Shown here in pieces: positions 27,908 to 39,946 of a DNA stretch of 64,000 nt. The DNA is from Herbinix sp. Lineage in GTDB: Bacteria > Bacillota > Clostridia > Lachnospirales > Lachnospiraceae. The translations under genes were made by a program, and so were the position numbers. Position 1 is the stretch's first letter. Each line of letters starts with the position of its first letter. A model generated the notes under the pieces. It saw only the letters and a program-made list of their open reading frames with translations. It was not told where the DNA came from and searched no databases. The stretch is taken from NCBI GenBank assembly GCA_029238935.1, contig JAQZBN010000008.1, forward strand, positions 1 through 64,000. Direction: 5' to 3'.

Positions 27908-28681
27908 TTACACCTTGCCTACAGCATTTGCTGCAAGATCTAAGGTTTTATCTACGGATTGTATTACCTTCTGATTTGCCTCATAAGCTCTGGTAATACT
28001 GATCATTTCAACCATCTCAGCTACTGCATTGACATTGGACTGCTCAGTAAAACCTTGTTTTATTGAGGCACTTCCTGTAAGCTCTACAGCTCCATCCAAG
28101 GTTTGATACATGGTATCATCAGTTTTTATTAAATAATCATAATCTTCAAAATCCACAACCTGTATCTGATCTATATAGGTTCCATCTGCATAGATATTAC
28201 CCATCTCGTCGATGACCACTTCAGCTGCATCCACCGGAACCATCACTTCACCACTTTCACCCATGAGATGATTCCCTTCCGAATCAACTACATACCCGTC
28301 TCTGGCCATAGTAAATGAACCATTACGGGTATAACTTATCCTATCATTTCCTTGATTATCCGTGGAGGACACTCGAAAGAATCCGTTACCCTCCAATGCT
28401 AAATCGTAGGTATTACCGGTTTGTCGTAAGGAGCCTTGTCCATAATTCGTATATACTTCACCCAGTTTTACACCAGGACTCATTCTACCTATGGGTCGGT
28501 TATTATATGCTTCGGATGAATCTCTCATCTTAATCGTAAGTAAACTATCAAAAGACTGACTCGTTACATTTTCCTCCTTATATCCGACAGTCGCCGAATT
28601 TGCGAGGTTATTTGCAATAATATCAAGTCTTTTTTGCTCATTAGCCATTCCTGTGTAAGCTGTATACAGCCCTCTTACCAT
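27908..28681 (-). CDS. Flagellar rod protein, FlhO/FlgF-like
   Basis: A 257-residue paralogue of the downstream protein: MVRGLYTAYTGMANEQKRLD and ANNLANSATVGYKEE at the N-terminus, LALEGNGFFRVS near 94-105 and MVEMISITRAYEANQKVIQS near 225-244. By order after mbl it corresponds to FlhO of Bacillus. It begins 13 nt after the mbl/mreB gene, behind AGGAGAGAT, so shape and flagellar rod genes share a transcript. Confidence 0.92.
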   Translation of the reverse strand: MVRGLYTAYTGMANEQKRLDIIANNLANSATVGYKEENVTSQSFDSLLTIKMRDSSEAYNNRPIGRMSPGVKLGEVYTNYGQGSLRQTGNTYDLALEGNGFFRVSSTDNQGNDRISYTRNGSFTMARDGYVVDSEGNHLMGESGEVMVPVDAAEVVIDEMGNIYADGTYIDQIQVVDFEDYDYLIKTDDTMYQTLDGAVELTGSASIKQGFTEQSNVNAVAEMVEMISITRAYEANQKVIQSVDKTLDLAANAVGKV

Positions 28682-30756: not shown

Positions 30757-30800
30757 AAATATTATAAAAAAGCTGCCTCTTGGTAACCAAGAGACAGCTT
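30757..30800 (-). terminator. Terminator of the str operon (after tuf)
   Basis: AAGCTGCCTCTTGGT (30770-30784) pairs with ACCAAGAGACAGCTT (30786-30800) with one wobble. Leftward the stem is followed by TTTTTATAATATTT. Confidence 0.9.
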
Positions 30801-30814
30801 ATTATTTAATTTAA

Positions 30815-31945
30815 TTATGCGATAATAGTAGCAACCTTACCGGAACCTACTGTTCTACCACCTTCACGGATAGCGAAGCCTAAACCTTGCTCCATAGCGA
30901 TCGGATGAATTAATTCAATGTTCATCTCGATGTTATCGCCAGGCATACACATCTCTACACCTTCAGGAAGGTTGCAAACGCCAGTAACGTCAGTTGTTCT
31001 GAAATAGAACTGAGGTCTGTAGTTATTGAAGAAAGGAGTATGACGTCCACCTTCTTCTTTTGTTAAAACGTAAACCTGAGCAGTGAATTTCTTATGGCAT
31101 TTGATTGAGTTTGGTTTGCAAAGAACCTGTCCTCTTTCAATTTCGTTTCTTTGAACACCACGAAGAAGTGCACCGATGTTATCACCAGCCTGAGCCTCAT
31201 CAAGAAGCTTTCTGAACATTTCGATACCGGTTACAACAACTTTACGGTTCTCTTCTTTAATACCAACGATTTCAACTTCCTCAGATACGTGAAGAATACC
31301 ACGCTCAACACGGCCAGTAGCAACAGTACCACGACCAGTGATAGAGAATACGTCTTCGATAGGCATTAAGAAAGGCTTGTCTGTCTCTCTCTGAGGATCT
31401 GGAATCCAAGTATCAACTGCTTCAAATAATTCAAGAATCTTATCGCCCCAAGCGCCGTTAGGATCTTCAAGAGCTTTAAGAGCGGAACCTTGGATGATTG
31501 GAGTATCATCGCCAGGGAACTCATATTCATTTAATAAATCTCTAACTTCCATCTCAACTAACTCAAGAAGCTCAGGATCATCAACCATATCACATTTGTT
31601 CATGAATACTACGATGTAAGGTACACCTACCTGACGGGAAAGTAAGATGTGCTCTTTTGTCTGAGCCATAACACCGTCAGTAGCAGCTACAACGAGGATA
31701 GCACCATCCATCTGAGCAGCACCAGTGATCATGTTCTTTACATAGTCAGCATGTCCTGTGATACCTCTTGCTTTTTCTTCTGGAGCTTTGTCGATCTGAT
31801 CGAATGCTACAACTTCGCCAGTTCCAAGTCTCTCATGAAGGGTCTTTGTGATTGCTGCTGTAAGAGTAGTCTTACCATGGTCAACGTGACCGATGGTACC
31901 GATATTACAATGTGGTTTGTTTCTTGTAAATTTAGCCTTTGCCAT
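30815..31945 (-). CDS. tuf: Elongation factor Tu with a 21-residue internal deletion
   Basis: EF-Tu carries aminoacyl-tRNA to the ribosome with GTP. The product is 376 residues where the family has about 397. The G1 motif GHVDHGKT (near 19) and G4 NKCD are present, as are domains 2 and 3 up to GKVATIIA. Between ARGIT (switch I threonine) and GHADYVKNM, however, the usual ~21 residues, including the DCP of the G3 DCPGH motif, are missing. The junction is between 31757 and 31756 and the loss is exactly 63 nt, so the frame is kept. By family knowledge, losing the G3 aspartate and the beta strands before it should abolish normal GTP switching. Options are a non-functional second copy, a real variant with another role, or an assembly error. 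It follows fusA in the str operon and has a strong AAAGGAGG site. Confidence 0.9.
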
Positions 31946-31972
31946 TTTACAACGTCCTCCTTTAATTATGAA

Positions 31973-32041
31973 TGCTTATATAAGCAAATGTTTATTTGCC
32001 CTTACAGGAAATACTCTGTTAAGAGCATTCCCTTTAGGGCA
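31973..32041 (-). promoter_or_regulatory. Structured tuf leader with competing stems
   Basis: In the 212-nt fusA-tuf spacer a stem TGCCCTTA (31997-32004) with TTAGGGCA (32034-32041) encloses GGAA..CTCT/AGAG..TTCC pairs. A second hairpin GCAAAT (31984-31989) with ATTTGC (31994-31999) overlaps it, and a palindrome TGCTTATATAAGCA (31973-31986) overlaps that. The three cannot all form at once. The palindrome lies close to the tuf ribosome site. Confidence 0.45.
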
Positions 32042-32157
32042 GATTTTATTTATATTGCCTCATATGCCATATTATATTTCAAGTTAGAAATATTTTCAAG
32101 CAAAATTAACTTATATATTCACTTTTGTCTTTAATTTCTAACTCTTTTTTAAATTAA

Positions 32158-34278
32158 TTATTTCTTACCTTTTAAAGAAAGTACTTTTTCCTGAACGTTT
32201 TTAGGAACCGGCTCATAGGTTGAGAAGAACATGGAGTATGCACCACGACCCTGAGTTCTGGAACGAAGGGATGTTGAGTATCCAAACATTTCGGACAACG
32301 GAACAAATCCTCTAATTAACTTCGTACCATTAATATCCTCTGTACCTTCAATACGTCCACGACGGGAGCTGATATCACCGATAACATCACCCATATAATC
32401 ATCCGGAACTGTTACTTCTACTCTCATGATTGGCTCAAGTAAGATGGAATCTGCTTTGTGCATCGCATCTTTAAATGCCATAGAACCAGCAATCTTGAAT
32501 GCCATTTCATTGGAGTCAACTTCATGGTAAGAACCATCGTATACAGTAGCTTTTACACCAAGTACTGGATATCCACCTAAGATACCAGCTTTGGTTGCTT
32601 CCTCGATACCTTCACCAACTGCAGGAATGTATTCTCTAGGAATAGCACCACCAACGATTGCTGAAACAAATTCGAAAGTCTTCTCGGAGTTAGCATCCAT
32701 AGGCTCAAAGCGAACCTTACAATGACCGTACTGACCACGACCACCGGACTGCTTAGCGTATTTACTATCAACTTCAACAGTCTTAGTAAAGGTTTCTTTG
32801 TATGCAACCTGAGGAGCACCAACATTTGCCTCAACTTTAAACTCACGAAGAAGTCTATCAACGATAATTTCAAGGTGTAACTCACCCATACCGGCGATAA
32901 TTGTCTGACCTGTTTCTTCGTTTGTAAATGTTCTGAAGGTAGGATCTTCTTCTGCAAGTTTTGCTAAAGCTTCACCCATCTTATCCTGACCAGCTTTTGT
33001 CTTAGGTTCGATCGCAACCTGAATAACAGGTTCAGGGAATTCCATAGACTCTAGGATTACAGGGGATTTTTCATCACAGATGGTATCACCTGTTGTAGTA
33101 ACCTTCAAACCTACTGCTGCTGCGATATCTCCAGAATAAACCTTTTCAAGGTCTTCTCTCTTATTCGCGTGCATCTGTAGAATACGACCAACACGTTCCT
33201 TCTTGTTCTTTGTGGAGTTAAGTACATAAGAACCTGAATTTAAGGTACCGGAGTAAACTCTAAAGAATGCAAGCTTTCCAACGAATGGATCGGCCATAAT
33301 TTTGAATGCTAAAGCTGCAAAAGGCTCCTCATCGGAGGACTTTCTGTGAACTTCATTACCATCCTCATCCACACCCTTGATGTCAGCAATGTCGGTAGGA
33401 GCTGGTAAATATTCAATAACAGCATCCAGAAGTTTCTGAACGCCCTTATTTCTGTAAGCGGAACCACAGCATACAGGGATGATCTGAACATTGATGGTAG
33501 CTTTTCTTAAAGCTGCTTTCAACTCTTCAGTAGAAGGTTCTTCACCCTCTAAGAATTTTTCAATCAATTCATCATCTGTCTCACAGATAGCTTCAATCAT
33601 AGTAGCTCTGTATTCTTCTGCTTCGTCCATCATATCTTCAGGGATTTCGGAAATTGAGATATCTTCGCCCTTATCATCATTATAAAAATAAGCTTTCATC
33701 TCAAATAAATCGATAACTCCCTTGAAGGTATCTTCTTTACCGATAGGTAATTGAATCGCAACTGGATTTTTACCTAATCTGGTTCTAATCATTCTAACAA
33801 CATTGTAAAAATCAGCACCAGAAATGTCCATCTTATTAACGAATGCCATTCTAGGTACCTGATATTTATCAGCTTGACGCCATACGGTCTCTGACTGTGG
33901 CTCAACGCCACCTTTTGCACAGAATACACCAACCGCACTGTCTAGTACACGTAAAGAACGTTCTACTTCTACAGTAAAGTCTACGTGACCAGGAGTATCA
34001 ATGATGTTGATACGATGCTCCTGCGCACCAGGAATTTTCTTATGCTCAAACTCTTGAGTCCAATGACATGTTGTCGCCGCTGATGTAATAGTAATACCTC
34101 TTTCCTGCTCTTGTTCCATCCAGTCCATGGTTGCAGTACCTTCGTGGGTATCACCTATCTTGTAGTTAACACCGGTATAATATAGGATACGTTCGGTAAG
34201 TGTTGTCTTACCAGCATCGATATGCGCCATAATACCAATGTTTCTAGTCTTCTCTAACGGATATTGTCTTCCTGCCAA
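32158..34278 (-). CDS. fusA: Elongation factor G
   Basis: A 706-residue translocation GTPase of normal length. G1 [15 protein letters not shown] (about 18-32), switch I with [13 protein letters not shown]3 [10 protein letters not shown] near 91, G4 NKMD near 146, then domains II-V with [14 protein letters not shown] near 470 and [16 protein letters not shown] near 515. It moves tRNA and mRNA through the ribosome after peptide bond formation and aids ribosome recycling. It is the third gene of rpsL-rpsG-fusA-tuf. An AAGGAGG site precedes the ATG. All GTPase motifs are intact, in contrast to tuf downstream. Confidence 0.97.
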
Positions 34279-34425: not shown

Positions 34426-34920
<495 letters not shown>

Positions 34921-35167: not shown

Positions 35168-35590
35168 TTATTTCTTTGCTTCCTTAGGTCTCTTAGCACC
35201 GTACTTAGAACGTGCTTGTCTTCTCTTAGCAACGCCTGCAGTATCAAGTGTACCTCTGACAATGTGGTATCTGGTACCAGGTAAGTCCTTTACCCTACCA
35301 CCTCTGATCAGAACAACGCTATGCTCCTGAAGGTTGTGACCTTCACCAGGGATATAGCTTGTTACTTCGATTCCGTTGGAAAGACGAACTCTGGCAATTT
35401 TACGAAGCGCTGAGTTAGGTTTCTTAGGAGTTGCTGTTCTAACTGCGGTACATACGCCTCTCTTCTGTGGTGAAGAAACATCCGTAGTTCTCTTGCTAAG
35501 TGAGTTAAAACCCTTCTGTAAAGCAGGAGAGGTTGATTTCTTCTCAACAGTCTGTCTTCCTTTTCTTACTAATTGGTTAAATGTGGGCAT
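35168..35590 (-). CDS. rpsL: 30S ribosomal protein S12
   Basis: A 140-residue S12, full length, with the decoding-centre loop [17 protein letters not shown] (about 40-56) in wild-type form at the lysines where streptomycin-resistance mutations occur. The second loop is [17 protein letters not shown] (about 91-107). It is the first gene of the str operon, with a consensus promoter about 150 nt upstream and CAGGAGGTG before the ATG. Confidence 0.97.
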
Positions 35591-38234: not shown

Positions 38235-38514
38235 ATAGTAAAACCGATGAGTAAGAAGAGTAGATATTGTGCTTATATCCAGAGAGCTGCAGGTGGTGCG
38301 ATTGCAGCAATAAAAGCAATATTGAATGGACTTACGAGGGTGGGAAGAAAGGTAGAAATACCAAGTAATGCCCAACGGGATCTCCATCCGTTACCAAGGG
38401 AGCATATATGTTTGTATATGACAGAGTGGGTGCATTGCACCAAACCGGGTGGTACCGCAGAAGTTTATATTAGGCTTTTGTCCCAGTAATTTACTGAGAC
38501 AAAGGTCTTTTTTT
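38235..38514 (+). ncRNA. T-box leader, tRNA-Trp specific
   Basis: The conserved T-box AAACCGGGTGGTACCGCAG lies at about 38443-38461. It is followed by an intrinsic terminator whose arms AGGCTTTTGTCCCAGTAA (38472-38489) and TTACTGAGACAAAGGTCTT (from 38491) precede a long T-run ending near 38514. In stem I the specifier context GAA-TGG-A places a TGG (Trp) codon at 38327-38329. Uncharged tRNA-Trp would pair with the specifier and the T-box to prevent termination, so the downstream gene is induced by tryptophan shortage. Confidence is high for a T-box and good for the Trp specifier. Confidence 0.92.
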
Positions 38515-38566
38515 ATACCCTAAATCAAGTAATTCAATAGGAGCAAAATTTGAAAGGAGAATTCAT

Positions 38567-39946
38567 ATGTCGAAAAAAATTCCACACAGATTCTATTTAA
38601 CGGAGGATCAAATGCCGAAGCAGTGGTACAATTTACGGGCAGATATGAAGGAACAACCGGATCCCATGTTAAATCCCGGCACTCTACAGCCTGTTACTGC
38701 AAAGGATCTGTATCCCGTCTTTTGTGAGAAACTTGCCAATCAGGAGATGGATGCTACGACCAGATATGTTGATATTCCTGAAGAGATACAGGAATTTTAT
38801 AAAATGTATCGACCTTCACCCTTAATCAGAGCCTATCATTTGGAGAAGGCCCTCGGTACTCCCGCAAAGATATATTATAAATTTGAAGGAAATAATACCT
38901 CAGGTAGCCATAAATTAAATTCAGCCATTGCTCAGGCCTACTACGCAAAGGAGCAGGGTCTTGCGGGACTTACTACTGAAACCGGTGCAGGTCAATGGGG
39001 AACTGCATTGGCCGAAGCCTGCGCTTATTATAATCTTCCACTTACCGTATTTATGGTTAAAGTATCCTACGAGCAGAAACCCTTCCGTAAAGCTGTAATT
39101 CATACCTTTGATGCTGATATCATTCCAAGTCCAAGTATGACCACCAATGCCGGACGCTCCATTTTAGAGAAAAATCCAACTACCGGTGGTAGTTTAGGCT
39201 GTGCAATTTCAGAGGCAGTTGAAAAGGCAGTCACCACTCCCGGTTATCGTTATGTATTAGGTTCTGTTCTTAACCAAGTTCTTTTGCATCAATCCATTAT
39301 TGGTTTAGAAACCAAGATGGCAATGGATATTCTCGAGGAATACCCTGATATTGTGATCGGATGTGCAGGAGGTGGTTCTAACCTCGGTGGCTTGATTGCC
39401 CCTTATATGCAGGATAAATTATTAGGTAAAGCCTCCCCAAGAATTATTGCTGTAGAACCAGCTTCCTGTCCTTCCTTCACCAGAGGACGTTATGTATATG
39501 ATTTTTGTGATACCGGAAGAGTTACCCCGCTGGCAAGGATGTACACCTTAGGCAGCAGTTTCATGCCATCAGCCAATCATGCTGGCGGATTAAGATACCA
39601 TGGAATGTCACCCATTCTTTCTAAGTTATATCATGATGGTTATATGGAAGCTATTGCAGTGGAACAGACGAAGGTTTTTGAAGCTGCTACTTTCTTTGCA
39701 AAACAGGAGACCATACTTCCTGCTCCGGAATCTGCTCATGCGATCAAAGCTGCCATGGATGAAGCCTTAAAATGCAAAGAAACCGGTGAGTCCAAAACAA
39801 TTCTCTTTGGATTAACCGGTACAGGTTATTTTGATATGACTGCTTATAATTCTTATTTAGACGGTTCTATGACAGATTACATTCCTTCTGATGAAGATTT
39901 ACAGAAAGGGTTTGACGAATTGCCAAGAATTCCAGGAATACAGTAA
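38567..39946 (+). CDS. trpB: TrpB2-type tryptophan synthase beta subunit
   Basis: A 459-residue PLP enzyme of the TrpB2 group, longer than classic TrpB at the N-terminus (RFYLTEDQMPKQWYNLRADM). The PLP lysine is in SGSHKLNSAIAQA (near 110), ETGAGQWGTALA follows at about 138, and the phosphate loop is GCAGGGSNLGG near 265. TrpB2 makes tryptophan from indole and serine and usually works without a TrpA partner. None is near. The Trp T-box upstream directly supports tryptophan synthesis or indole salvage as its role. AAAGGAG precedes the ATG. Confidence 0.94.
   Translation: MSKKIPHRFYLTEDQMPKQWYNLRADMKEQPDPMLNPGTLQPVTAKDLYPVFCEKLANQEMDATTRYVDIPEEIQEFYKMYRPSPLIRAYHLEKALGTPAKIYYKFEGNNTSGSHKLNSAIAQAYYAKEQGLAGLTTETGAGQWGTALAEACAYYNLPLTVFMVKVSYEQKPFRKAVIHTFDADIIPSPSMTTNAGRSILEKNPTTGGSLGCAISEAVEKAVTTPGYRYVLGSVLNQVLLHQSIIGLETKMAMDILEEYPDIVIGCAGGGSNLGGLIAPYMQDKLLGKASPRIIAVEPASCPSFTRGRYVYDFCDTGRVTPLARMYTLGSSFMPSANHAGGLRYHGMSPILSKLYHDGYMEAIAVEQTKVFEAATFFAKQETILPAPESAHAIKAAMDEALKCKETGESKTILFGLTGTGYFDMTAYNSYLDGSMTDYIPSDEDLQKGFDELPRIPGIQ

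What the first reader, a model, noticed from the sequence alone, without database searches (positions are those of the whole stretch)
31740..31775. EF-Tu gene lacks exactly 21 codons around the G3 motif
The tuf product goes straight from ARGIT to GHADYVKNM, dropping about 21 residues that are nearly invariant in EF-Tu, including the DCP of DCPGH (the Mg2+-coordinating Asp). The loss is an exact multiple of three and the rest of the gene is intact with strong codon conservation, a good ribosome site and the terminator in place. Known EF-Tu mechanism says GTP switching should fail. The options are a decaying or repurposed second copy, a real but odd variant, or an assembly or sample artefact.
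Basis: partly seen in the sequence, partly recalled or inferred. Interest (0 to 1): 0.7.

Follow-up and report, generated by a model that had tools for sequence, protein, structure and literature searches.

The report
Probable misassembled EF-Tu gene
The only copy of an essential protein-synthesis gene in this draft bacterial genome is missing 21 codons that every readable relative keeps, which most likely reflects an error in the draft sequence and not a new kind of elongation factor.

Summary
The tuf gene (30815-31945, minus strand, 376 aa) lacks exactly 63 nt between window bases 31756 and 31757, so ARGIT runs straight into GHADYVKNM. Of 33 other same-genus genomes held, 27 are readable there and all 27 have the stretch; 6 are unreadable. 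The joined sequence occurs in 0 records of the collection of 84,980 species genomes (own record may be left out).

This is the only tuf in the assembly: domain 3 matches once, as in 6 of 6 congeners tested. No intact DCPGHADY and no copy of the missing piece was found elsewhere.

The rest of the gene looks like a normal working EF-Tu: 2 private residues against 0-13 in 19 relatives. An essential, single-copy gene should not lose two strands of its GTPase core and the Mg-site aspartate yet stay otherwise pristine in a living cell. I read this as an assembly or consensus error in a draft genome (157 contigs, 8% contamination), or at most a dead minor allele. Reads were not available, so this is inferred. 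A working G3-less EF-Tu is not excluded but very unlikely (about 2%).

The parts
30815..31945 (-). tuf, elongation factor Tu, 376 aa as assembled (397 aa in relatives)
   Evidence: Pfam GTP_EFTU, D2, D3; TIGR00485 EF-Tu 658.4 bits, cut-off 522.4
31756..31757 (-). joint where 63 nt (21 codons, [17 protein letters not shown] in relatives) are absent
31740..31771 (-). stretch encoding [11 protein letters not shown] across the joint
   Evidence: single match in window, none in 100 shuffles
30770..30800 (-). terminator-like hairpin after tuf, 14 pairs then T run
32158..34278 (-). fusA, elongation factor G, G domain intact (profile 2-187 of 188)

Best explanation
The organism carries a normal 397-aa EF-Tu, and the deposited consensus has lost 63 nt. 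The likely route is a draft assembly joining or resolving the sequence wrongly just before [12 protein letters not shown], the part of the gene with the longest exact run shared with other families. That the 63 nt are absent from the assembly is shown. That the loss happened in the computer and not in the cell is inferred from essentiality, single copy and lack of decay. The exact assembly step is a guess.
For: Single tuf in the assembly: PF03143 matches once. DCPGHADY with up to 2 mismatches gives one match, which reads YRPGHADY in another protein. The 63-nt piece has no match elsewhere. One tuf is normal here: PF03143 matches once in each of 6 congeners tested, among them G006 (1 contig) and G005 (4 contigs). 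EF-Tu is required for viability in Firmicutes: passages of PMC12548448 state it is essential in B. subtilis and that knocking down both C. difficile copies causes a strong viability defect. Asp80, lost here, is part of the switch II trigger sequence DX2G that, with the P-loop, is said to contribute most to GTP binding (passages of PMC5446176). Every readable relative is intact: 27 of 33 other same-genus genomes, 6 unreadable. Selection elsewhere in the gene is intact: 18 aa changes among 89 changed codons against G015, and 2 private residues against 0-13 in 19 relatives. The genome is a draft: 157 contigs, 8.08% contamination. The longest exact run that own tuf shares with a genome of another family (8 loci compared) is 40 nt, positions 188-227, directly beside the joint. 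The left edge of that run is set by the deletion itself, so only its presence counts.
Against: The loss is an exact multiple of three and falls between codons (about 1 in 3 by chance). No direct repeat flanks it; shared bases at the ends are 2 nt in 17 and 0 nt in 10 of 27 relatives, so a simple repeat collapse is not the cause. The neighbourhood is otherwise clean: among 114 relatives' ORFs compared over 104 kb (ORFs from 5 relatives, so one gene can count several times), tuf is the only gene with a deletion against all 5, and no ORF is split between frames. There is no N in those 104 kb. There is no clear sign of two lineages joined: identity to G005 rises from 0.87 to 0.97 across the joint, but it rises for all 19 relatives there. 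Contig ends fall inside tuf in at least 6 of 33 congeners (G002, G010, G011, G016, G018, G041), but about 6 ends are expected from contig counts, so tuf is not shown to be a special breaking point.
Confidence: 0.85

Rival explanations
1. A real, very recent in-frame deletion that kills the protein, carried by part of the sampled population or by a strain that has an intact second tuf which the draft failed to assemble.
For: The deletion is clean, in frame and without flanking repeats. The genome is 95% complete, so a second copy could be missing. The lack of decay fits an event too recent to have left traces.
Against: 6 of 6 congeners tested have one tuf. No fragment of another copy is found in 5.37 Mb. 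A dead allele would not be expected to become the consensus in an otherwise clean 174-kb contig (104 kb of it examined).
Confidence: 0.13
2. A genuine working EF-Tu that has dropped the strand 2 - strand 3 hairpin and the G3 aspartate, joining Thr61 to Gly83 (E. coli numbering, recalled), and switches by another route.
For: The gene is the only tuf in the assembly and is otherwise strongly conserved, is in frame, and has its ribosome site and terminator. In a low-confidence model of the intact relative the lost residues 64-84 cover two whole strands, 69-72 and 77-82, so the cut follows a structural unit.
Against: No sign of compensation (2 private residues, both far from the joint in sequence). 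No relative found shares it. It removes 17 residues invariant in 15 relatives. In the model of the short form the P-loop region drops in confidence (residues 11-30: block means 43 and 50, against 64 and 70 in the intact control) and strand 1 shrinks to two residues. Both models are poor (pTM 0.44 and 0.51), so this is weak.
Confidence: 0.02

Closest known systems
EF-Tu (TIGR00485 / NF009372) of the same genus, e.g. L064, a Herbinix sp. MAG
   Same: tuf with the same three domains; 91% DNA identity outside the gap for G015/L013, whose contig has the same length as that of L064
   Different: Window gene lacks 21 codons including DCP of DCPGH
aSelBL, archaeal SelB-like factors with a severely disrupted GTPase domain (PMC3037878, abstract seen)
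   Same: An elongation-factor relative with loss in the GTPase domain
   Different: aSelBL is described as a family spread across archaea, proposed to stem from a duplication of aSelB; here it is the only EF-Tu, undiverged, in one draft genome

Membership tests
EF-Tu | Domains 2 and 3 present and alignable over their length | tested here: met
   PF03144 positions 1-73/73, PF03143 1-105/106
EF-Tu | Score above NCBI's EF-Tu equivalog cut-off | tested here: met
   658.4 against 522.4 bits (intact L064: 730.9)
EF-Tu | Complete GTPase domain with G3 motif DCPGH | tested here: not met
   PF00009 positions 57-77 absent; DCP missing, GH kept
EF-Tu | P-loop (G1) GHVDHGKT, switch I Thr and NKCD (G4) kept | tested here: met
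   translation, invariant columns (motif names recalled)
EF-Tu | Location in the str operon region after rpsL-rpsG-fusA | tested here: met
   ORFs 35168-35590 and 34426-34896 (rpsL and rpsG by recall of their sequence, no family search), 32158-34278 fusA
Assembly artefact | Reads carry the longer allele | not testable with these tools
   no reads held
Pseudogene / decaying second copy | Relaxed selection and an intact copy elsewhere | tested here: not met
   2 private residues; no other copy found

The most novel reading that the evidence does not exclude
A living bacterium runs on a single EF-Tu without the G3 aspartate and without strands 2 and 3 of the GTPase core, which would mean aminoacyl-tRNA delivery can be controlled without the canonical switch II Mg contact.
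Probability: 0.02. Interest if true: 0.95.

Novelty: not a real feature. Interest (0 to 1): 0.08.

Why it matters
As an artefact it matters only as a warning. An in-frame loss in an essential gene passes frame checks and NCBI's naming cut-off (658 against 522 bits), so automatic annotation would probably call it EF-Tu without complaint. If it were real and functional it would overturn the textbook GTP switch of EF-Tu.

Tried and rejected
Repeat-mediated collapse: short direct repeats exist in the intact relative's gene (three copies of an 11-nt unit around CACGTTGA, and one 21-nt pair), but they do not flank the lost piece (relative L064 only); end homology is 0-2 nt. Rejected.

Chimera of two lineages: identity to 19 relatives along the gene shows no clear switch at the joint. 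Rejected, not strictly excluded.

Apparent second case: G041 seemed to align straight through the joint (query 1-217). The fetched contig shows [21 protein letters not shown] present; the contig simply ends soon after. Rejected as a second case.

Apparent extra tuf in congener G005: a 48-nt match 18 kb past its tuf is only a scrap of the last 16 or so codons. A domain-3 search finds one tuf in G005.

Structure models: both were of low confidence, so no fold search was made.

Literature: six searches of the open PMC library. One search, on the motif with 'deletion', found 0 papers. Searches were seen as listings with the start of abstracts (at most 15 papers each); no title or abstract start there describes a G3-less EF-Tu. 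Passages were seen of PMC5446176, PMC5574714 (EF-Tu essential; not otherwise used) and PMC12548448; abstracts and outlines of PMC6582330 (not used) and PMC3037878. PMC4342817 was searched for six terms only, with one hit in its reference list.

Full report
What is there. The minus-strand ORF 30815-31945 encodes EF-Tu of 376 aa directly after fusA. It has all three EF-Tu domains, but the GTPase domain lacks Pfam profile positions 57-77. The joint lies at 31756|31757. In relatives exactly 63 nt, 21 codons, stand there. They encode IST(A/S)HVEYE(S/T)[11 protein letters not shown] in the same-genus relatives; 17 of the 21 positions are invariant in 15 named relatives. The loss removes the DCP of the G3 motif and keeps GH. 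In E. coli numbering (recalled) it is residues 62-82.

Whose genome. The genome (G000) has 5,365,008 bases in 157 contigs, 95.06% completeness and 8.08% contamination. The contig is 173,845 bases long. Congener G015's contig has the same length, 11,594, as JAQSYO010000050.1, titled Herbinix sp. MAG, and other best matches are titled Herbinix, Mobilitalea or Clostridiales. The genus is therefore Herbinix or near it, in the Lachnospiraceae (family name recalled). The window's own record is unnamed; that it is a metagenome-assembled genome is likely but not shown.

Is it shared? In one search, 34 same-genus genomes were searched, own included. Of the 33 others, 25 show both flanks as two pieces with exactly 63 extra bases between them (computed by hand from the listed positions). 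G024 shows one piece with 63 extra bases. G041 was read directly and is intact. That makes 27 of 33 intact, 0 short and 6 unreadable at the site (G002, G016, G018, G043, G044, G049: no match, or only short weak matches elsewhere). In one search, 27 of the 29 loci L010-L038, including 7 from other families of the order, have 21 residues between RGIT and GHADY. Of 71 named loci, my script found a full tuf in 15, and all 15 are intact; in 56 it found none of the form it sought. The degenerate 32-base joint pattern finds 0 records in the 84,980-genome collection (the own record may be left out there) and 0 in viral contigs. It does match the window once (positive control).

Is there another copy? 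EF-Tu domain 3 matches once in the whole assembly, with all 14 control genomes positive. PF00009 gives 22 matches, of which two are the pieces of this gene. I did not name every one of the other 20, but none of them lies beside a domain 3. A DNA search with an intact relative's tuf finds only this locus as a long match, and nothing for the 63-nt piece, at E up to 10. A DCPGHADY pattern with up to two mismatches gives one match, which reads YRPGHADY in another protein, chorismate synthase by recall. Each of 6 congeners tested, G003, G005, G006, G012, G022 and G023, has a single EF-Tu domain 3. So in this assembly the short gene is the only EF-Tu found, and one copy is the rule among those relatives.

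Is the gene decaying or adapting? Neither shows. Against G015, 89 codons differ but only 18 residues. Own tuf has 2 private residues against 19 relatives, whose own counts run from 0 to 13. Neither of the two (positions 165 and 279) lies near the joint in sequence. Identity along the gene gives no clear hint of a chimera: from the window before the joint to the one after it, it rises for all 19 relatives; G005 is the top match after it (0.87 to 0.97).

Is the sequence around it bad? No. In 104 kb of this contig compared with 5 relatives (114 relatives' ORFs with a best match of 60% identity or more; a gene can count once per relative, and some may be chance ORFs), no ORF is split between frames, and only tuf has a deletion of 4 aa or more against all 5. 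Three less conserved proteins differ from G023 alone, and 13 ORFs matched only in part at an end and were not followed. No N occurs.

Why I call it an artefact. EF-Tu is essential: PMC12548448 (passages) says so for B. subtilis, and for the two copies together in C. difficile. PMC5446176 (passages) places Asp80 in the switch II trigger sequence DX2G. A sole, undiverged EF-Tu lacking this aspartate and the two strands before it cannot be expected to work. A broken sole copy cannot be expected in a living cell. The gene shows no trace of the time a rewired EF-Tu would need. Hence the sequence most likely misreports the cell. The joint abuts a stretch exactly shared over 40 nt with another family, L032/G027; that kind of sequence can give assemblers wrong paths in mixed samples. 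This last step is inference. The deletion is not explained by flanking repeats, tuf is not shown to be a place where congeners' contigs break more often than expected (at least 6 of 33 genomes, about 6 ends expected), and the clean surroundings and the in-frame length count against a sloppy assembly. I therefore leave 13% for a real but non-functional allele and 2% for a working variant.

Structure. AlphaFold2 models from shallow alignments: short form mean pLDDT 55.3, pTM 0.44 (16 sequences); intact L064 56.5 and 0.51 (15 sequences). The lost residues 64-84 include both strands 69-72 and 77-82 of the intact model. The P-loop region is less confident in the short form (43 and 50 against 64 and 70 for residues 11-30). 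The intact control is itself poor, so I give this little weight.

Noticed in passing
G005:C1 304968-323400 (loci L052, L053): In congener G005 a 48-nt copy of the last codons of tuf (reads [16 protein letters not shown], 85% identical to the window's tuf end) lies about 18 kb beyond the intact tuf, on the same strand. This looks like the scar of a mobile element that inserted at the 3' end of tuf; the genes between were not examined.
   Followed up: partly
window 38238-38488 (+): T-box leader RF00230, 108.7 bits, upstream of a gene whose relative G023 ORF (474 aa) matches 38561-39931 at 86% identity; gene not identified.
   Followed up: no
L003 292-2253 (-), G000:C82: EF-G-like protein of 653 aa closest to the tetracycline ribosomal protection family but below its cut-off (593.6 against 775 bits), so a relative and not a called resistance gene.
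   Followed up: partly
L007 241-2343 (-), G000:C24: A second EF-G-type protein (700 aa, NF009381 893.7 bits) besides fusA in the window.
   Followed up: partly
L077, SHOH01000107.1: A contig titled Anaerolineaceae MAG4 carries a relative, 70% identical, of the window ORF 27908-28681 (flagellar rod type by recall), which suggests a binning or labelling error in that record.
   Followed up: no
G002, G010, G011, G016, G018, G041 tuf: In at least 6 of 33 congeners a contig ends inside tuf; about 6 ends are expected from contig counts.
   Followed up: partly
window 31946-32157: The tuf-fusA gap has an 11-of-12 sigma-70-like site at 32099-32071 (-), so tuf may have its own promoter; 8 sites found against 6.0 expected in the region.
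   Followed up: no
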